64,000 nucleotides of DNA from Blautia pseudococcoides. Its GTDB lineage: Bacteria > Bacillota > Clostridia > Lachnospirales > Lachnospiraceae. Below the pieces are notes generated by a model. The model did no database searches, was not told the origin of the DNA, and saw only the letters and a list, made by a program, of their open reading frames with translations. Of this stretch, positions 48,289 to 56,237 are shown piece after piece (the first letter of the stretch is position 1; every line of letters starts with the position of its first letter). The stretch lies in the NCBI RefSeq assembly GCF_001689125.2, contig NZ_CP015405.2, positions 3,664,501 through 3,728,500 on the forward strand, written 5' to 3'. The position numbers and the translations under genes were made by a program.

Positions 48289-48792
48289 TCATCCTTTGCT
48301 TTTATCATCTGAGGAGACAACATAATAATATCGGTCTACACTTTTCCCCCTATTTACAACCGAATCGCGTTCTAGTCCCATCTTGATGAATCCACAGCGT
48401 TCAAATAGCCGTTGTGCACTGGTATTGTCTATTTCTGTATAGAGATACACTTCTTGTAAGCCTATTTCAGAAAAAGCATAATGAAGCAGCAAGTATGTTG
48501 CTTCTTTAGCAATTCCTTTCCCCTTGAACTCTTGCTCTCCAAGTGTGATGTAATATTCCGCCCGACCACCCGAAATCGACAGCAATCCGATCAGCCCCAC
48601 TGGCACATCGTCACATTCAATAACAGCATCATACCTATCTGCTCTATACTTATTATTCTCATACCAGATTTCCGTTTGTGGGATATTCAGTGGCAAATCG
48701 TAGTGCAAATATTGATTATTATTCTCGTCATTAATCCAACGTACTTTATTAGGTATGTCTTCTTTTACAAATCTTCTCAACTGTATTTTCAT
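48289..48792 (-). CDS. GNAT-family N-acetyltransferase, possible UDP-amino-sugar acetyltransferase
   Basis: This 167-residue protein of the RimJ/RimL and PseH-like group has the acetyl-CoA loop in QEFKGKGIAKEA near residues 94-105 and the late NTSAQRLFERCGF motif. Next to a UDP-sugar dehydratase, aminotransferase and priming transferase, the simplest role is acetylation of the new 4-amino group of the primer sugar. It overlaps the priming transferase gene by 4 bp, which supports a shared pathway. Confidence 0.87.
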   Translation of the reverse strand: MKIQLRRFVKEDIPNKVRWINDENNNQYLHYDLPLNIPQTEIWYENNKYRADRYDAVIECDDVPVGLIGLLSISGGRAEYYITLGEQEFKGKGIAKEATYLLLHYAFSEIGLQEVYLYTEIDNTSAQRLFERCGFIKMGLERDSVVNRGKSVDRYYYVVSSDDKSKG

Positions 48793-49469
48793 TTATGCAC
48801 CATTTCTCTTCTGTTCCAATCTCTTCTTGCATGATCAAGCCTTCCGGCAGGAATCTGGTTTCCAACCAAAATATCCGATTTTTTTATAACTTTAAAAAAG
48901 GTCTTAACAATAATTCTAGCATCCATCAAAAAAGTACAATGTTTCACATAATAAAGATCCTGTTGTAAGCGTTCATCCCACGCCGTAACATTCCGTCCAT
49001 TTACCTGTGCCCAGCCAGTCAATCCTGGTCGAACATCATGTCGGTGCATTTCTTCATCTGTATAATAAGGGAGATACTCAACCAGAAGTGGTCTAGGGCC
49101 TACAATACTCATATCACCCCGAAAGATATTCCACAATTCCGGGAGTTCATCAAGACTTGTAGATCGTAATCTCCTCCCAAAAGTAGTAAGTCTAACTTCA
49201 TCTGGTAGTAAAATCCCGTCTTTATCTCTTTTATCAATCATGGATCTAAATTTATAAAGATAAAAGCTCTTCCCCTTTAGACCAGGTCTTACTTGTTTAA
49301 ATATTACAGGCGATCCCAATTTCACACGGACTAGAATAGCCGTAACCAATAACACCGGTGATAATAAAATCAAAGCAATACCTGAAAGCACTACATCTAT
49401 AGGCCGTTTTATGTATTTTTCAAAAAAACTTTTTTTACAAGTTTTACTTTGTTTCTTTTTTTCATCCAT
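48789..49469 (-). CDS. Priming glycosyl-phosphate transferase (bacterial sugar transferase, PglC/WcaJ-like)
   Basis: This 226-residue membrane enzyme places sugar-1-phosphate on undecaprenyl phosphate to begin a repeat unit. One N-terminal re-entrant helix (about 22-45) precedes FKQVRPGLKGKSFYLYKFRSM (split here by position 75-95), the DELPELWNIFRGDMSIVGPRPL catalytic block and RPGLTGWAQVNGRN. It is small, like PglC. ATG at 49469 follows AAAGGGA; a GTG 24 bp earlier is less well placed. It overlaps the GNAT gene. Confidence 0.95.
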   Translation of the reverse strand: MDEKKKQSKTCKKSFFEKYIKRPIDVVLSGIALILLSPVLLVTAILVRVKLGSPVIFKQVRPGLKGKSFYLYKFRSMIDKRDKDGILLPDEVRLTTFGRRLRSTSLDELPELWNIFRGDMSIVGPRPLLVEYLPYYTDEEMHRHDVRPGLTGWAQVNGRNVTAWDERLQQDLYYVKHCTFLMDARIIVKTFFKVIKKSDILVGNQIPAGRLDHARRDWNRREMVHK

Positions 49470-49480
49470 GTTCTTTCCCT

Positions 49481-50794
49481 TTACTCGAAGCACCTTCTAA
49501 TAATATCAACAACTCTATCCACTTGCTCATAACTCATCTTATTATCACTCGCTAGGCACAATCCCCTGTGGAAGATATCTGCACCGACATCAGAATCAAT
49601 ATCCTCATCCATATAAGCATTGCTTTTGCCACGTCCATTCCCCTTTGCAGTTACAAAACCATGCATCCGGTAAATTGGTTGCATATGCATCGGCTTCCAG
49701 ATTGGTCGTCCTTCTGCATTAAAGGCAGCAATCGCCTCCAATATCTCTGTCGGACAAGACTTTCCAGGCTCAGACACATAAAGTGCTTTCTGCTCACCAC
49801 GCATCTGTTTACACATTGCTTCTTTATTAATCAATAAGCAACTCAACCAGTAGTTTGGTACGATATCTACACCGCTCAAACTCACCGGATTCATACTAAC
49901 AGGCAAATCTTTTAGTCCCTTTTTATATCTTTCATAAATAGCTTTCTTTTGACTTCTATGGTCTTCTGCATACGGAAGCTGACCACGCAGCACACCAGCA
50001 ATGATATTACTCATGCGATAGTTATACCCCACTTCCTCATGTTGATACCACGAAGCATCCTCCCGACTCTGGGTGGACCACTTGCGGACCTTGTTGGCCC
50101 ACTCCAAATCATCAGTCAAAAGTAGTCCTCCGGAACTTCCCGTGCATAGCTTATTACCGTTTGCGGACAGGATTGAGACATCTCCAAAACACCCGGTCTG
50201 GATACCGTTATAGGTAGCACAAAAAGACTCTGCTGCATCCTCTACAATTAAAGCATGGTGATCATCTGCAATTCTTTTGATCTCATCCATCTTTGCTGGC
50301 GTGCCATAGAGATGAACAATCACGATCAGCTTCACATCCGGATATATTTCAAATGCCTTCTCAAGAGCCACAGGGTCCATATTCCAGGTATCATATTCGG
50401 TGTCTATGAAAATGGCCTCGCCGCCCTCATATGCCACCGGATTCACAGTGGCAGCAAAAGTCATATCACTGCAGAACACCTTCTTTCCTTCCAGTGTTCC
50501 ATGACTGACTTTGGGCTGACCATAGAGCTTTTCTCCACAGAGTTTTATTGCCAGGTGAAGTGCAGCGGTTCCAGAGGATAATGCCACAGCATGCTTACGC
50601 CCCACCTTCTCTGCCGTCATACGCTCTACTTCATTGATATTAGGTCCTACTGTTGACACCCAATTGGTGCGAATAGCTTCATCCACCCACTTCTGCTCGT
50701 CACCGTGCATTGTGGGGGAAGAAAGCCATACCTTACTTGAGAAAGGCTCTATGCCCTTGAATCTCGGATCTAATAAGTATTTCTCTCTGTCCAT
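49481..50794 (-). CDS. DegT/DnrJ/EryC1/StrS-type UDP-sugar aminotransferase (PglE-like)
   Basis: This 437-residue fold-type I PLP enzyme makes a 4-amino sugar from a 4-keto nucleotide sugar. HAVALSSGTAALHLAI near residue 90, VEDAAESFCATYNG near 193 and the PLP lysine in SANGNKLCTGSSGG near 218 are clear. It follows the PglF-like dehydratase gene and precedes the priming transferase, matching the order of bacillosamine-type pathways. ATG has GGGAG ahead. Confidence 0.94.
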   Translation of the reverse strand: MDREKYLLDPRFKGIEPFSSKVWLSSPTMHGDEQKWVDEAIRTNWVSTVGPNINEVERMTAEKVGRKHAVALSSGTAALHLAIKLCGEKLYGQPKVSHGTLEGKKVFCSDMTFAATVNPVAYEGGEAIFIDTEYDTWNMDPVALEKAFEIYPDVKLIVIVHLYGTPAKMDEIKRIADDHHALIVEDAAESFCATYNGIQTGCFGDVSILSANGNKLCTGSSGGLLLTDDLEWANKVRKWSTQSREDASWYQHEEVGYNYRMSNIIAGVLRGQLPYAEDHRSQKKAIYERYKKGLKDLPVSMNPVSLSGVDIVPNYWLSCLLINKEAMCKQMRGEQKALYVSEPGKSCPTEILEAIAAFNAEGRPIWKPMHMQPIYRMHGFVTAKGNGRGKSNAYMDEDIDSDVGADIFHRGLCLASDNKMSYEQVDRVVDIIRRCFE

Positions 50795-50979: not shown

Positions 50980-53223
50980 TTAAACTTTATACCTATATGT
51001 GGGAACCACTTTACCTACAAGTTCCCTAATATCATCCTGATTGCAATAACTAGATTCTGCTAAATTATCCAAATCGATCAAAAACTTCTCTACATCAAAC
51101 GGAATAGGACTTCCAATATGTATCAACTTATTCGGTGTAGTCTTCATCCCTTCCTCCGCCATCAGCTTCTCTTCATAAAGCTTTTCTCCTGGTCTCAGTC
51201 CAGTATATACAACCGATATGTCTACATCCGGCTTATACCCTGAAAGTTTTATCAAATTACGAGCCAATGTATCAATTTTCACAGGTGCTCCCATATCCAA
51301 AATGAATATCTCGCCACCCTTCGCATACGTCCCTGCCTGCAACACGAGACTCACCGCCTCAGGTATTGTCATAAAATATCGAATAATATCCGGATGCGTA
51401 ACAGTGACTGGCCCACCTGCTTCAATCTGCTTCTTAAAAAGAGGAATCACAGATCCATTACTTCCTAAAACATTACCGAAACGAACAGCAACAAAATCTG
51501 TATATTTTCTATCCTTAACATCCTCTTCAACCCTATACTCTCTGGTAGCCGCTACCATTTCATAAACTGTATCTTTCTCATGCCCATTTAAGTCCGGCAA
51601 ATCCATTGTCTTTCCCTGCTTACTCAGCCTATCCATAGTCTGAATCACCATCTCACAAAGCCTCTTACTTGCCCCCATAATATTCGTAGGATTAACCGCC
51701 TTATCCGTACTGATCAGCACAAATTTCTCGCACCCACTCTGCAGTGCCGCGCTTGCAGTCTTATACGTCCCCAAAACATTATTCTTTATTGCCTCACAAG
51801 GACTCGTCTCCATCAAAGGCACATGTTTATGTGCAGCCGCATGATAAACCACATCCGGTCTGTACTCTGCAAACACACTGTCAACCCTTCTACTATCCCT
51901 CACCGATCCAATCAAAACAACCAAATCCAGCTTCGGATATTTCCGTCTCAACTCCTGCTCAATTTCATAAGCATTATTCTCATATATGTCAAATATGATC
52001 AGCCGTTTCGGACCATGCGCCGCAATCTGCCGACACAACTCGCTGCCAATAGAGCCCCCTCCACCTGTAACAAGAATCGTCTTATTCCGCAGCGCATTAA
52101 AGATTTCCTCCATATTGACCTGGATCGGATCTCTCCCCAACAAATCCTCCACAGCCACACTCTTCATCTTACTAATCGAGACTTCCCCATTCACCAGCTG
52201 ATATATTCCTGGAAGTATCTTCATTTCGCACCCAGTCTCTTTACAGATATTAAGAATATCTCTCTTTACCTCAGCCGAAGCACTGGGGATCGCCAGCAAA
52301 ATCTGGTCAATCTTATATTTCTCTGCACTCAGCAGAATATCATCCCTATTCCCAACAATAGGAATCCCTTCTATGTAACGTCCCATCTTATTCGGATTAT
52401 CATCAATAATACAGCAAACCTTTGCCTTCACCTCACTGGCCCTATTCAAATCTCTGATTATAATCTGCCCCGCGGCCCCTGCCCCGATCAGCATAACCCG
52501 ATGAAGAACCGTATCCTCTTCACTCTGTTTATTCCGATTACGCTCCAACAAAATAAACCGATAAGAAAACCGAACTGCAACCGTAAACACAAACTGCAGC
52601 ATAATCCCAAACAAATAATAAGAAATTGGCATTCTCTTCACAAACAAAGTAATACCAATAATCTGAAACAACCCAGTCACAACATTAGCCGCCCCAATCC
52701 GGAACAACTCACTAAAACTGGCAAACCTCCAAACACTCTTATACAGCCTCAACACCCAATAAACCGCTATACAAAACACCGTATACCAAGGCGCAAATTT
52801 CAAAAACGACCCGAGATAAATATCCGGAATCAAAGAATACCGACAGTCAAACCTAACCCACAAAGCCAGCATAAACGCCGCGTTCACAGCCACAACATCG
52901 TAAAGCATCAGCCAAAGCGCAATCGCCTGCCAATGTTCCATTACCTTTTTCTTCCTACCCGCCTTGCGCATCAATTCTTCCTGAACCCTGTCCCTCTCCT
53001 CATTCGTCTGTGCCGCTTTCCATTTTCTCTCTTCCTCACCGGTCATACCAGAGCCATTTTCCATGCTCTCGTCATATCCAGCATCTATACCACCACGAAT
53101 AAACGCCTCCTGCTCATTATCCTCTCTCTTCCTGTCTCCGGCGTTGATCTTCGCCAAAGCAAACACTATCACAAACAGGAACAGCACCAGCAGAAGCAGC
53201 AGCACAATGATTATCTGCCACAT
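50980..53223 (-). CDS. PglF/CapD-type membrane UDP-GlcNAc 4,6-dehydratase
   Basis: This 747-residue protein is first in the main polysaccharide operon. Membrane helices (about 3-25 and four between 98 and 228) precede a first nucleotide-binding fold (VMLIGAGAAGQII, 243-255) and a second catalytic SDR-like domain with VTGGGGSIGSEL (385-396). FlaA1/PglF proteins convert UDP-GlcNAc to the 4-keto-6-deoxy sugar. An unusual extra acidic linker (30-90) separates helix 1 from the rest. A structured leader lies 108 bp upstream. RBS GGGGAGA. Confidence 0.94.
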   Translation of the reverse strand: MWQIIIVLLLLLVLFLFVIVFALAKINAGDRKREDNEQEAFIRGGIDAGYDESMENGSGMTGEEERKWKAAQTNEERDRVQEELMRKAGRKKKVMEHWQAIALWLMLYDVVAVNAAFMLALWVRFDCRYSLIPDIYLGSFLKFAPWYTVFCIAVYWVLRLYKSVWRFASFSELFRIGAANVVTGLFQIIGITLFVKRMPISYYLFGIMLQFVFTVAVRFSYRFILLERNRNKQSEEDTVLHRVMLIGAGAAGQIIIRDLNRASEVKAKVCCIIDDNPNKMGRYIEGIPIVGNRDDILLSAEKYKIDQILLAIPSASAEVKRDILNICKETGCEMKILPGIYQLVNGEVSISKMKSVAVEDLLGRDPIQVNMEEIFNALRNKTILVTGGGGSIGSELCRQIAAHGPKRLIIFDIYENNAYEIEQELRRKYPKLDLVVLIGSVRDSRRVDSVFAEYRPDVVYHAAAHKHVPLMETSPCEAIKNNVLGTYKTASAALQSGCEKFVLISTDKAVNPTNIMGASKRLCEMVIQTMDRLSKQGKTMDLPDLNGHEKDTVYEMVAATREYRVEEDVKDRKYTDFVAVRFGNVLGSNGSVIPLFKKQIEAGGPVTVTHPDIIRYFMTIPEAVSLVLQAGTYAKGGEIFILDMGAPVKIDTLARNLIKLSGYKPDVDISVVYTGLRPGEKLYEEKLMAEEGMKTTPNKLIHIGSPIPFDVEKFLIDLDNLAESSYCNQDDIRELVGKVVPTYRYKV

Positions 53224-53330
53224 AATATCTCCCCTCGTATTCCTAAATCATTTTTATCTCTTTAATTTTTTGTTTATTATTACTTTGAATATTCTCTGCC
53301 CCAAAAGGCAATTCTTCGCCGCCCCCGCTA

Positions 53331-53404
53331 AGGAGCCGACCGGCGATATTCAACCGGAAACTATGCGTCACTGGCGCACAGCCTCTTGCCAGTTTCCCGG
53401 CATC
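53331..53404 (-). ncRNA. Structured leader RNA of the polysaccharide operon (GEMM/c-di-GMP-I-like candidate)
   Basis: The minus-strand RNA starting GAUGCCGGGAAACUGGC has a hairpin CUGGC..GCCAG, the core GACGCAUAG (compare GACGCAAAG in c-di-GMP-I riboswitches), a second short hairpin CCGG..CCGG, and a closing GCCG/CGGC stem. A short hairpin (GGCGA..UUGCC) with UUUU follows before the gene. The GAAA tetraloop of typical GEMM RNAs is missing. Alternatives are an antitermination element or a guide RNA for the adjacent TnpB-like protein. Confidence 0.45.
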
Positions 53405-53405
53405 T

Positions 53406-53436
53406 ATATAAGAGTGAATGTTCACACTTATGTCAA
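53406..53436 (-). promoter_or_regulatory. Promoter of the polysaccharide operon with internal dyad
   Basis: On the minus strand TTGACA (53436-53431) and TTATAT (53411-53406) are 19 bp apart. Between them lies GTGAA-CA-TTCAC (53425-53414), a dyad in the spacer where a regulator could act. The spacer is longer than ideal, so activation may be needed. Confidence 0.5.
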
Positions 53437-53488: not shown

Positions 53489-54694
53489 TCAAATTTTCCT
53501 CTTCCGCTCAAAATCCTTCAGGCATTTCACCCCAAGATTTCTCGCACTGTTCAGGAACCGACTGCCCTGATGCCCATTCTCGCACTCAAACATAGCTCCG
53601 TTTTTCTTGATCTTCCCGCCGCAGACAAAGCACTTACTACTCGTCCCTTCCGCACTAAGCTCCAGAACCACGATACCGGTGCTCCATGCCTTATACTTCA
53701 GAAACTCTCTTATCCTGCTTCCTAAATACAACGGCGAATACATCCCTGAACGATACCGGACAACCTTTGTAAACTCCTTATCATAAGACGGAAATACCAA
53801 AACGCTGGCTTCTTCCCTCACACAGAAATCCACGATTTCCCTGCTCACCTGATGTGCATAATGCTCGGACAAGTTTTTTAAACGCAAATAATATTTGTGA
53901 TTCGCATGAGGAGCATTGTCTTTATCCGTATAAACTCTGGATTTCTCGATCTTCTCCAAAAGGACCTTACATTTGCTTCTATACGCATCCCCGCCTCTGC
54001 AGGAATACACAGCCTTTTGTTTCCCATCCCCATCCAGCACACAGCACATAGCAAAAATGTCCGTATTGGTAAACTGCACGCTGCAGACATTCTCTCTACT
54101 CATCATCCGCTCTTTTGCGTTCCTGGCATCCTCCGTCTGCTGTTTCACAGGCACATGCAGCCAAAACTCCTTCTCCCGGAAAACAACTGTGGGAGAAAGC
54201 ATCATACCATCTTCAGGCATCGACTGCCCCTTTAACCTGCAGTCCATCCAGTTCCACTTCTTCCCATCCCATACCTTCAGAGAAATCTTATTCTCCCGAA
54301 AATCCTTATACATCCCCTTAAAGTAGGTCACAGACGCATCAATGGTATCCGGTATGGTATAGACCAGGTCATCACCCGAATTTTTATACTTTTCCGTATA
54401 ACTCTTCAAACTGGCAGATGCCTTATTAATAGCGGACCGCCTGAAATAAACCGGAACCTTGTCAAAGGGCAGCGGCCTCTCAGGCACTCTCCCGTCTCTC
54501 CCTGCAATAGTCAGGCGTTCTAACGCCCCCTGCATCTGAAGGAGATTCAATTCCCAGATTTCTTCGTGCTCCAAAAGCAGCCGAAAATAAAAATCCAACA
54601 CCTGCCTGTAATATTTCTCTGTTTCTGTCAGCCATTCCGGGTGAGAACAGCGAAGTTTGTATTTAATTGTCTTAATGCAGTATCCTGTTTTCAT
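53489..54694 (-). CDS. TnpB-like protein lacking RuvC catalytic residues (TldR-like candidate)
   Basis: This 401-residue protein has the general architecture of TnpB/OrfB: a helical N-terminal part, a RuvC-like fold and a C-terminal zinc ribbon (C355-x2-C358 and C371-x3-H375, CFVCGG..CENGHQG). At the places where TnpB has GIDLG, an E in IVIEDL, and DRDxNAARN, this protein reads SVQFTNTDIF (about 205-214), VLVFPSYD (298-305) and SRFLNSARN (378-386), so all three acids seem lost. There is no tnpA or IS end. It lies between an invertible segment and a capsule operon promoter. Its start is 22 bp from an inverted repeat and has only a weak ribosome site. Confidence 0.7.
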   Translation of the reverse strand: MKTGYCIKTIKYKLRCSHPEWLTETEKYYRQVLDFYFRLLLEHEEIWELNLLQMQGALERLTIAGRDGRVPERPLPFDKVPVYFRRSAINKASASLKSYTEKYKNSGDDLVYTIPDTIDASVTYFKGMYKDFRENKISLKVWDGKKWNWMDCRLKGQSMPEDGMMLSPTVVFREKEFWLHVPVKQQTEDARNAKERMMSRENVCSVQFTNTDIFAMCCVLDGDGKQKAVYSCRGGDAYRSKCKVLLEKIEKSRVYTDKDNAPHANHKYYLRLKNLSEHYAHQVSREIVDFCVREEASVLVFPSYDKEFTKVVRYRSGMYSPLYLGSRIREFLKYKAWSTGIVVLELSAEGTSSKCFVCGGKIKKNGAMFECENGHQGSRFLNSARNLGVKCLKDFERKRKI

Positions 54695-54716: not shown

Positions 54717-54740
54717 CATATTTTTTTAGAAATACGACAT
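54717..54740 (+). repeat. Left inverted repeat of the invertible segment
   Basis: This 24-bp site (beginning CATATT, ending TTTTAGAAATACGACAT) matches its inverted partner at 56214-56237 at 23 of 24 positions. An AGACAAG word (54751-54757) inside the segment is also mirrored (56203-56209). Confidence 0.85.
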
Positions 54741-54742
54741 GA

Positions 54743-54785
54743 GATAAAAAAGACAAGTCAGAAGGCGCGTTTGGCGGCTTCTGAC
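54743..54785 (-). terminator. Terminator of the recombinase gene, inside the invertible segment
   Basis: On the minus strand GTCAGAAG and CTTCTGAC (54785-54757) form an 8-bp stem extended by CGC/GCG after one mismatch, followed by a T run (54752-54745). It should stop recombinase transcripts just before the left inverted repeat, so the TnpB-like gene is not fed by them in this orientation. Confidence 0.75.
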
Positions 54786-54813
54786 CATTTTGGTGACCAT
54801 TAATAATTCTGGT

Positions 54814-55950
54814 TCATAGTATTGTGAGCTGGTTCATATATCTGCGCTTGGTATCCGGCTGTATATGCACATATAGGTCAAGCGTTGTCTTTACCGAAGT
54901 GTGGCCCAGGATTTCGGACAGGGATTTTGTATCAAAACCTTGTTCTATCCAGCGGCATGAGAACTGATGGCGGAGCGCATGGATTTTTATGTGGCGGATC
55001 CGGCATTTTTTTAAAAGAGCGGCGTATCTCCGTTGTATTGTCCTTGGTTCCATGCATTTTTCTGTTCCGGTTAGGACAAAAAAGCTGCTGTCCTTTTTTA
55101 AAGGTGCAGCCAGTGCCAGAAGTCTGTCAGGCAAAGGAATGGAACGTATGGATGTCGGTGTTTTCGGAGTGCCGATATTCAAATGTGTGCGGGAGCATTG
55201 ACTTTTTCCGTCTGTTATGAGCATATTCAGGTTTTTTACACGTGTCACAGTGCGGCGAATGTGAATTTTGCATTGCGTAAAATCAATGTCTTCCCACTTC
55301 AGGCCGCTCAGTTCGCCTACACGGATTCCGGTGTACATGCATAAGAGGATGCCAAAAGAAAAAGGATCTATATTGTTGAACAGGTAGGAATCGAGCTTCT
55401 TGTAATCTTCACTGCTCATAATCTGTATATCACTGCTGCTTGAGGGGATACGGGGGAATTTAAGCGGCTCAGCCGGGAAGTAGCCGAATTCCTGAGCATA
55501 CCGGAGAATATTTTTGAGTACACTTAGGATCACATGGATACTTCCGAATGCCATTCCCTGCTCCAGTTTCTTTTGCACAAAACCTGTGAGGGTGTGGTTA
55601 GTAAACTTTTTAACCTGCATTTGGCCCAGGAGGGGCAGAATGTGATTGTCAAGAATCTCCTCATAGTTGGAATACGTGCTTTCTTTCACAGTATAGCGGA
55701 TATGGGATTTCCACTGTATGCTTACGGTACGGATCTGGTCATCAAGGGGTGGCGTAGAGGACTGACTGCCGTACAGATACAAATTTGGATTTTCGGATAT
55801 GATCTTGGCTTTTTTATCTTTTACCTCCGTGTAGGACCTGCCATACAGATAGCCGTATCGGATTTTACCGTCTATGTCACGTCCTTTTACATACCGTGCT
55901 TCCCAACGACCATCTTTTCTTTTTCTGATATTTTCACCTCTTCTGGACAT
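54814..55950 (-). CDS. Tyrosine recombinase, probable DNA invertase
   Basis: This 378-residue site-specific recombinase has an N-terminal arm-binding-like region (about 1-60), a core-binding SAM-like domain (about 75-175) and a catalytic domain with R210 (TGIRVGE), H324 and R327 (HALRHQF), H350 (LGHTS) and Tyr360 (LDLYVH). ATG at 55950 has AGGAGG ahead. It resembles Tn916/phage-type integrases, but the gene is flanked by inverted rather than direct repeats, so I infer that it inverts the 1.5-kb segment in which it lies. Confidence 0.9.
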   Translation of the reverse strand: MSRRGENIRKRKDGRWEARYVKGRDIDGKIRYGYLYGRSYTEVKDKKAKIISENPNLYLYGSQSSTPPLDDQIRTVSIQWKSHIRYTVKESTYSNYEEILDNHILPLLGQMQVKKFTNHTLTGFVQKKLEQGMAFGSIHVILSVLKNILRYAQEFGYFPAEPLKFPRIPSSSSDIQIMSSEDYKKLDSYLFNNIDPFSFGILLCMYTGIRVGELSGLKWEDIDFTQCKIHIRRTVTRVKNLNMLITDGKSQCSRTHLNIGTPKTPTSIRSIPLPDRLLALAAPLKKDSSFFVLTGTEKCMEPRTIQRRYAALLKKCRIRHIKIHALRHQFSCRWIEQGFDTKSLSEILGHTSVKTTLDLYVHIQPDTKRRYMNQLTIL

Positions 55951-56128
55951 ATTGACCTCCTAAAAATTATGAATTTATTGCACAAATTCAGACCACTTTT
56001 CTGACCACTAATGGTTTTCTATTAATGGTGCCAAAATATCTCGGTTTTCATTTTATATCCCGTAAAGTTTTCCAGTGGTTCCGGATATACTAAAAATAGA
56101 CAAAAAATTGCCATTATTTTTTGGCATA

Positions 56129-56157
56129 TTGACTTTAAGGGCTTTTGGCGTTAAACT
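56129..56157 (+). promoter_or_regulatory. Promoter inside the invertible segment, pointing away from the capsule locus
   Basis: TTGACT (56129-56134) and TAAACT (56152-56157) are 17 bp apart on the plus strand. The transcript would cross the right inverted repeat and meet a small terminator-like hairpin at about 56392. After inversion the -10 would lie near 54797-54802 and read leftward through the left repeat into the TnpB-like gene. Confidence 0.65.
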
Positions 56158-56213: not shown

Positions 56214-56237
56214 ATGTCGTATTTCTAAAATAATATG
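56214..56237 (-). repeat. Right inverted repeat of the invertible segment
   Basis: This is the inverted partner of 54717-54740 with one mismatch (plus strand begins ATGTCGTATTTCTAAAA). The segment between holds the recombinase gene, its terminator and an outward promoter. The rest of 55951-56576 has no gene. Confidence 0.85.

What the first reader, a model, noticed from the sequence alone, without database searches (positions are those of the whole stretch)
53489..54694. Nuclease-dead TnpB homologue domesticated between a phase switch and a capsule operon
The protein keeps the TnpB length and C-terminal zinc ribbon, but the sites expected to hold the three RuvC acids read SVQFTNTDIF, VLVFPSYD and SRFLNSARN. 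There is no TnpA and no IS end. TnpB-like nuclease-dead repressors (TldR), known from other loci such as flagellin genes, use guide RNAs to silence promoters. Here the gene is under an invertible promoter and ends 53 bp before a capsule promoter, so RNA-guided control of surface polysaccharide is a reasonable hypothesis and appears to be a distinct branch.
Basis: partly seen in the sequence, partly recalled or inferred. Interest (0 to 1): 0.92.

Follow-up and report, generated by a model that had tools for sequence, protein, structure and literature searches.

The report
Dead TnpB with guide RNA, capsule operon
A Blautia bacterium carries a transposon-type DNA-cutting enzyme that has lost its cutting residues but keeps its partner guide RNA, placed at the start of a surface-sugar gene cluster behind a DNA switch; related bacteria repeat the arrangement, which suggests an RNA-guided controller of the cell coat whose DNA target is still unknown.

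Summary
The 401-aa protein (53489-54694, -) is a TnpB/Cas12f relative whose RuvC acids are replaced (Q207, P302, F380); a zinc ribbon is kept. It belongs to a deep clade (22 loci here, mainly Lachnospiraceae); the triad is absent in 21 of 21 readable members. In 19 of 22, polysaccharide genes follow within three genes; 14 of 20 have inverted repeats of 12 nt or more just upstream, against 0 of 15 relatives outside the clade.

New here: directly after the stop codon lies a conserved RNA with omegaRNA architecture; its pseudoknot beside the guide is paired in 119 of 120 cells, with compensatory changes in 6 of 6 pairs.

A relative of the recombinase is adjacent in only 5 of 22 loci; the inverted-repeat layout is commoner.

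Against the silencing story: no guide target was found. Whole-genome guide matches are at chance level (40 versus 42 for the control), and guide seeds are not enriched in the locus's own switch.

Verdict: probably a new TldR-like branch riding on phase-variable polysaccharide operons. RNA-guided DNA binding is inferred, not shown.

The parts
53489..54694 (-). nuclease-dead TnpB (TldR-like) gene, 401 aa; RuvC acids replaced by Q207, P302, F380; zinc ribbon C355 C358 C371 H375
   Evidence: Cas12f/TnpB structures found by profile at 1.5e-14 and weaker
53285..53431 (-). omegaRNA-like guide RNA scaffold: hairpin 1 about 53431-53408, hairpin 2 53402-53387, hairpin 3 53385-53357, hairpin 4 53356-53341, two further hairpins
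   Evidence: fold z -3.75, 0 of 200 shuffles; 20 of 37 consensus pairs compensatory in 9 rows; model R1 search; no Rfam match
53346..53351 (-). 5' strand of the pseudoknot (GAATAT, loop of hairpin 4)
   Evidence: with its partner 119 of 120 cells paired, 6 of 6 pairs with changes on both sides
53287..53292 (-). 3' strand of the pseudoknot (ATATTC), two bases before the guide position, as in ISDra2 omegaRNA
   Evidence: ISDra2 layout from passages of PMC10097598
53265..53284 (-). putative guide AGTAATAATAAACAAAAAAT; its first 12 bases are shared with L012 and L016, the rest is not
   Evidence: no target found
50980..53223 (-). FlaA1-like nucleotide-sugar dehydratase, first polysaccharide gene, 266 nt after the dead TnpB gene
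   Evidence: Polysacc_synt_2 8.8e-118
48789..50794 (-). next two genes, DegT-type aminotransferase and sugar transferase by similarity to genes of L013, L015 and L017
   Evidence: ORFs; similarity; Pfam of those relatives
54724..54740 (.). inverted repeat arm of the invertible element nearest the gene (17 nt exact)
   Evidence: (0 of 100 shuffles)
56214..56230 (.). inverted repeat, far arm of the invertible element
54814..55950 (-). tyrosine recombinase inside the invertible element
   Evidence: Phage_integrase 4e-21
56129..56157 (+). promoter TTGACTTTAAGGGCTTTTGGCGTTAAACT inside the element, facing away from the dead TnpB gene here (read as OFF); in the paralogue L003 the like promoter faces the gene
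54756..54786 (-). terminator-like hairpin before a T run, between recombinase and dead TnpB gene
   Evidence: -17 kcal/mol, z -3.55, 2 of 200 shuffles

Best explanation
It is a TldR-like ribonucleoprotein: a TnpB that lost its nuclease but kept its own guide RNA, domesticated as the first gene of phase-variable surface-polysaccharide operons. Shown: triad loss, RNA with conserved pseudoknot, linkage to polysaccharide genes and to inverted-repeat switches. Inferred: when the switch turns the promoter toward the gene, the dead TnpB, its RNA and the polysaccharide genes are made as one transcript. The protein binds the RNA carved from that transcript and uses a short guide to sit on DNA, blocking transcription of a competing surface locus or of its own. 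The direction (repression) and the target are unknown.
For: Triad loss in 21 of 21 readable members. The RNA directly after the gene covaries: pseudoknot 119 of 120 cells paired; the whole structure 87.5 % paired against 32-44 % when slid; 20 of 37 pairs compensatory in nine rows. Model R1 finds as many RNAs as dead genes in six of nine genomes: 2, 1, 2, 3, 1, 1 (seven of these ten RNAs are rows of the model itself). Polysaccharide genes follow in 19 of 22 loci; the tally for 14 relatives outside the clade lists none of those families. Switch repeats 14 of 20 against 0 of 15. Closest solved structures are RNA-guided Cas12f and TnpB. Precedent: csrA-linked TldRs with an inverton upstream and predicted cross-targeting guides (PMC13418256 section 11).
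Against: No target found: GTAATAATAAAC with up to 1 mismatch has 40 hits in the own genome against 42 for the reversed control; AGTAATAAWARA has 6, two of them the RNAs themselves, control 13; own 6-mer seeds in own switch regions 8 against 5.5 expected, 7- and 8-mers none. The guide's far part is not conserved even between 91-94 % identical proteins, and in L059 it runs into what looks like the next gene's ribosome-binding site. R1 finds nothing in G171 and G315, which hold dead copies, and only one weak contig-edge hit in G035. L061 lacks a recognisable guide end. An acid near the first site, D212, is kept in 17 of 20 rows.
Confidence: 0.55

Rival explanations
1. RNA-only regulator of the operon in cis: the dead TnpB binds its scaffold in the polysaccharide transcript and controls readthrough, processing or stability, the place that UpxY (Bacteroides) or LoaP (Firmicutes) antiterminators hold (recalled). 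No DNA targeting.
For: The scaffold lies between the regulator gene and the first polysaccharide gene. The guide's far part is unconserved. Seven genomes of the clade each show one NusG match only, so no LoaP/UpxY-like paralogue was seen; genomes without the dead TnpB were not compared.
Against: The pseudoknot beside the guide position persists as in DNA-targeting TnpB RNAs. The scan lists no terminator-like site between the RNA and the first gene. No NusG domain in the protein.
Confidence: 0.2
2. Self-addressed cis control: the only full guide match found is the RNA's own gene, so the complex binds there and acts as a roadblock between the regulator and the polysaccharide genes.
For: The only exact 12-nt match in the own genome is the RNA itself. 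A guide that only has to match itself would be free to drift, as seen.
Against: A target-adjacent motif at the own site is not known. TnpB-type systems normally avoid the own locus (recalled).
Confidence: 0.1
3. The complex binds the crossover sites of the switch and controls inversion rather than transcription.
For: Inverted repeats lie upstream in 14 of 20 loci; the repeat arms of the window, L003, L012 and L016 hold AGAAAT, one base from the guide start AGTAAT (seen after the fact).
Against: Own seeds are not enriched in own switch regions of 13 loci: 8 seen, 5.5 expected, 34 of 200 shuffles as high; none at 7 or 8 nt.
Confidence: 0.05
4. A decaying transposon remnant, or a nuclease with acids at shifted positions.
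For: One copy in G171 (L057) is cut by stop codons. D212 near the first site is kept in 17 of 20 rows.
Against: Open frames and a covarying RNA across several genera; no acid takes the place of E or of the third D in 21 of 21.
Confidence: 0.04

Closest known systems
TldR (TnpB-like nuclease-dead repressors), flagellin-linked and csrA-linked clades (PMC13418256; read: passages and section 11)
   Same: RuvC-dead TnpB, own adjacent guide RNA, new non-transposon partner genes; csrA-tldR loci also carry an inverton upstream
   Different: Partner is a surface-polysaccharide operon, not flagellin; the adjacent recombinase, where there is one, is a tyrosine recombinase, not Hin; no guide target found; kinship to the published clades not tested
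ISDra2 TnpB and its omegaRNA (PMC10097598; passages)
   Same: Protein family; pseudoknot formed by bases just before the guide; zinc-binding TNB domain
   Different: The sites of D191/E278/D361 are replaced; CCCH-like instead of CCCC ribbon; no transposase beside it
UpxY/UpxZ (Bacteroides) and LoaP (Firmicutes) regulators at the head of capsule or exopolysaccharide operons (recalled)
   Same: Early gene behind an invertible promoter, before the polysaccharide genes
   Different: Unrelated protein; no NusG domain
Nuclease-deactivated Cas12f of PDB 9n9c (named; function not read)
   Same: Nuclease-dead relative with a guide RNA
   Different: Weaker sequence match than Cas12f nucleases (4.6e-05 against 1.5e-14)

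Membership tests
TldR | TnpB homologue | tested here: met
TldR | RuvC catalytic triad lost | tested here: met
   21 of 21 readable clade members
TldR | own guide RNA scaffold next to the gene | tested here: met
   RNA expression and binding not testable
TldR | separated from the transposase, linked to other genes | tested here: met
   polysaccharide genes within three genes in 19 of 22 loci; no TnpA beside the window gene; IS ends not tested
TldR | guide matches a genomic target gene or promoter | tested here: inconclusive
   no match above chance; 6-nt guides suffice in a published TldR, which a genome scan cannot resolve
TldR | represses transcription | not testable with these tools
   needs ChIP-seq and a reporter
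TldR | groups with published TldR clades in a tree | not tested
   no published TldR sequence at hand; Wiegand 2024 not held
active TnpB nuclease | intact D/E/D | tested here: not met
UpxY/LoaP antiterminator | NusG N-terminal domain | tested here: not met
   E up to 10

The most novel reading that the evidence does not exclude
The polysaccharide operon makes its own guide: the guide RNA is part of the operon transcript, and the only full DNA match found is the locus itself. Switching the operon on would then create a self-addressed nuclease-dead TnpB complex that holds the operon (or the switch) in check: RNA-guided cis feedback on phase variation, which I did not meet in the papers searched.
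Probability: 0.12. Interest if true: 0.9.

Novelty: new variant of a known kind. Interest (0 to 1): 0.76.

Why it matters
Phase-variable surface polysaccharides shape how gut bacteria meet phages and the host, and how Gram-positive gut bacteria coordinate several such loci is poorly known (both recalled). A dead TnpB and guide RNA built into these operons would extend RNA-guided transcription control from flagella to the cell coat, and would couple it to DNA inversion. The RNA is sharply defined, so RIP-seq and ChIP-seq can test it directly.

Tried and rejected
Capsule promoter at 53436: rejected, it overlaps the RNA's first hairpin and is not conserved. A 17-of-19 match of the guide to 56091-56109 (pair I4) looked like a target upstream of the recombinase; the related loci do not keep it. 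Guide as an extended -10 promoter box: the sixth base of the hexamer does not fit and whole-genome matches were at chance. Guide against sister loci of the same genome: nothing clear; the L054 guide matches 11 nt in the L053 leader, untested for significance. No close relative was found in phages (best 21 %), plasmids (20-26 % among the 15 of 20 records listed) or viral contigs (none by one scan). The AlphaFold model is weak (pLDDT 59.1, pTM 0.43), so the structure search only names the family; triad loss rests on sequence alignment. My first extraction of canonical TnpBs was faulty for those rows and was redone (10 of 12 loci). The count of the guide start AGN[TA]AT is partly circular: one search extracted guides with that motif; by eye 21 of 22 loci have it and L061 does not. 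The relatives outside the clade came from a search with alignment A1, which held one of them (L021), so closer intact relatives may have been missed. The 160-nt limit of the repeat search was set. The pseudoknot was drawn from these sequences before it was counted; hairpin 2 is paired in only 74.8 % of cells.

Full report
Setting. The window lies at 3664501-3728500 of a 5.13-Mb single-contig genome, in the same genus as G005, whose contig length equals that of Blautia parvula NBRC 113351. On the minus strand the order is: tyrosine recombinase 54814-55950, the 401-aa protein 53489-54694, FlaA1-like dehydratase 50980-53223, then genes similar to polysaccharide genes of the relatives.

Observation. 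Pfam and NCBIfam put the protein in the TnpB/Cas12f family, the latter below its cut-off. A profile of 18 clade members finds Cas12f and TnpB structures at 1.5e-14 and weaker, and Foldseek with a low-confidence model finds the same families. Aligned with ten TnpBs taken from related genomes, all ten have D at motif I, eight have E at motif II (L135 and L148 read GD) and all ten have D at motif III; the window protein has Q207, P302 and F380 there. The zinc ribbon is kept as CxxC...CxxxH. A nearby acid, D212, is kept in 17 of 20 clade rows, but nothing replaces the other two acids.

A clade, not one odd gene. Of 145 relatives 5 genomes matched, own included; of 397 genomes of the family 26 matched at 1e-20, and that set mixes dead and other relatives. 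I assembled 22 dead loci (window, L003, L012-L020, L053-L056, L058-L064). I left out L022 and L065 (fragments), L052 (repeats L014) and L057 (cut by stops). The 20 long members and L055 lack D, E and D; L020 is a fragment not read at all motifs. Of the 15 relatives outside the clade, 14 keep the first D (L075 reads VGF), all 15 keep E and the third D, and all 15 have lost zinc cysteines. Dead rows and these rows lie on two sides of one 100/100 branch (20 and 15 rows). In 398 genomes drawn over the phylum 8 matched at 1e-30. Of the seven besides the own genome, six could be read; they keep D and E at motifs I and II, and the two copies of G764 read H at motif III. So no further dead member appeared outside the family in that sample, though most of my search was inside it. 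The own genome has two guided_TnpB matches at 1e-10, this gene and a 64 % paralogue at 384580.

The guide RNA. Directly after the stop codon the loci share a structured RNA. For the window the fold is better than all 200 shuffles. In nine rows, 20 of 37 consensus pairs have compensatory changes. In 20 rows aligned by sequence alone (L055 and L061 not included), the six pairs between the loop of hairpin 4 (GAATAT) and the strand two bases before the guide (ATATTC) are formed in 119 of 120 cells, each pair with changes on both sides; hairpin 2 is formed in 74.8 % and hairpin 4 in 88.8 % of cells. Sliding the partners drops pairing of the whole structure from 87.5 % to 32-44 %. I drew this structure from these sequences, which favours it over the slid versions, but the many compensatory pair types do not follow from that. 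It is the layout of the ISDra2 omegaRNA pseudoknot, where bases -6 to -2 pair with an upstream loop (PMC10097598, passages). A covariance model of nine rows finds as many RNAs as dead genes in G000 (2), G005 (1), G009 (2), G336 (3), G209 (1) and G460 (1); the ones in G209, G460 and one of G336 were not rows of the model. It finds one weak hit at a contig edge in G035, not examined further, and none in G171 and G315, whose RNAs are diverged. Only 150 first-look candidates were scored per genome. Rfam holds no match.

The neighbours. Within the next three genes, same strand only, 19 of 22 loci have polysaccharide genes (glycosyltransferases, sugar epimerases and dehydratases, DegT aminotransferases, sugar transferases, fucose pyrophosphorylase). 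The exceptions are L062 (one unassigned gene, contig end), L063 (glycosyltransferases on the other side, divergent) and L055 (no gene called by my script). For 14 relatives outside the clade, 40 downstream genes on either strand show none of these families among the 25 of 70 families listed; one polysaccharide deacetylase is listed. Exact inverted repeats of at least 12 nt with the right arm within 160 nt before the gene occur in 14 of 20 dead loci and 0 of 15 others; in L016, L053 and L055 one to four of 100 shuffles did as well. L013, L017, L018, L058, L061 and L063 did not reach 12 nt; L020 and L064 are cut short. The arms look like recombinase crossover sites, for example GTCGC...GCGAC in L014 and L015. 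Relatives of the window's recombinase (tblastn 1e-5) lie beside the gene in L012, L016, L017 and L056. In the window, L012, L016 and L017 the element's promoter faces away from the gene; in the paralogue L003, an element of about 0.5 kb without recombinase gene, the like promoter faces the gene. A terminator-like hairpin separates recombinase and dead TnpB in the present orientation. I read this as OFF in the window and ON in L003; inversion itself was not seen.

The guide and its target. By the ISDra2 layout the guide would start AGTAATAATAAAC in the window. Across the 20 extracted loci the guide start reads AG-N-[TA]AT, but the extraction used that motif; by eye it holds in 21 of 22 and fails in L061. 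Beyond about 12 nt there is no conservation even among the three closest loci. In the own genome AGTAATAAWARA has six hits (13 for the reversed control), two of them the RNAs themselves. For the other four I looked at the bases and for two at the ORFs; none was seen beside polysaccharide genes. GTAATAATAAAC with one mismatch has 40 hits against 42 for the reversed control; 30 of the 40 were viewed as bases, their genes not named. Own 6-mer seeds are not enriched in the switch regions of 13 loci (8 against 5.5, 34 of 200 shuffles), and 7- and 8-mers are absent. So the target is open. A published TldR reduced motility with guides as short as 6 nt (PMC13418256, passages); so short an address cannot be found by a genome scan.

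Mechanism. Most likely the switch turns on one transcript carrying dead TnpB, its RNA and the polysaccharide genes. The protein binds the RNA and the complex sits on DNA to repress a competing or the own locus. RNA binding is strongly implied by covariation; DNA binding and repression are inferred from the family. The main rival is an RNA-only role in cis, in the place that UpxY or LoaP hold elsewhere (recalled). Seven genomes of the clade show a single NusG match each; that is compatible with the rival but is no proof, since genomes without the dead TnpB were not compared.

Known or new. Searches of the held library found two papers with TldR, TnpB and RNA-guided together, none for TnpB + capsule + polysaccharide + nuclease-dead, none for inverton + TnpB + polysaccharide and none since 2024 for TldR + polysaccharide. 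The founding TldR paper and the TnpB diversity survey are not held, so this clade may be listed there. The closest precedent is the csrA-tldR loci with a Hin inverton upstream and cross-targeting guides (PMC13418256 section 11). I file the finding as a new variant of a known kind.

Noticed in passing
G000:C1:346605-347920 (locus L091, 16606-17921): A second recombinase gene with the same promoter type, in the place where G009 carries a dead TnpB and polysaccharide operon (L017), but here no such genes follow in the fetched stretch: the operon seems lost and the recombinase left.
   Followed up: partly
L057 8268-9266 and L065 (genome G171): A dead TnpB copy cut by stop codons (L057) and a contig-edge fragment (L065) beside a longer open copy (L062) in the same genome.
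   Followed up: no
L021, L034, L066-L078: The relatives with RuvC acids have lost zinc-ribbon cysteines, while the dead clade keeps them: the opposite of what one might expect.
   Followed up: no
window 54724-54740 and 56214-56230; arms of L003, L012, L016: The repeat arms contain AGAAAT, one base from the guide start AGTAAT; seen after the fact, and own seeds are not enriched in the switch regions.
   Followed up: partly
L053 5992 (-): The leader between the RNA and the first polysaccharide gene holds GTTATGAAAAATAGAG, an 11-nt match to the guide of the sister locus L054 of the same genome; could be chance.
   Followed up: no
L019 upstream of 6728: Long nested inverted repeats (49 and 32 nt arms) lie inside the switch region; no other locus shows such arms within 500 nt before the gene.
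   Followed up: no
G000, G005, G009, G336, G315, G035, G209: Each of these seven genomes shows one NusG match only, so no LoaP or UpxY-like paralogue was seen.
   Followed up: no
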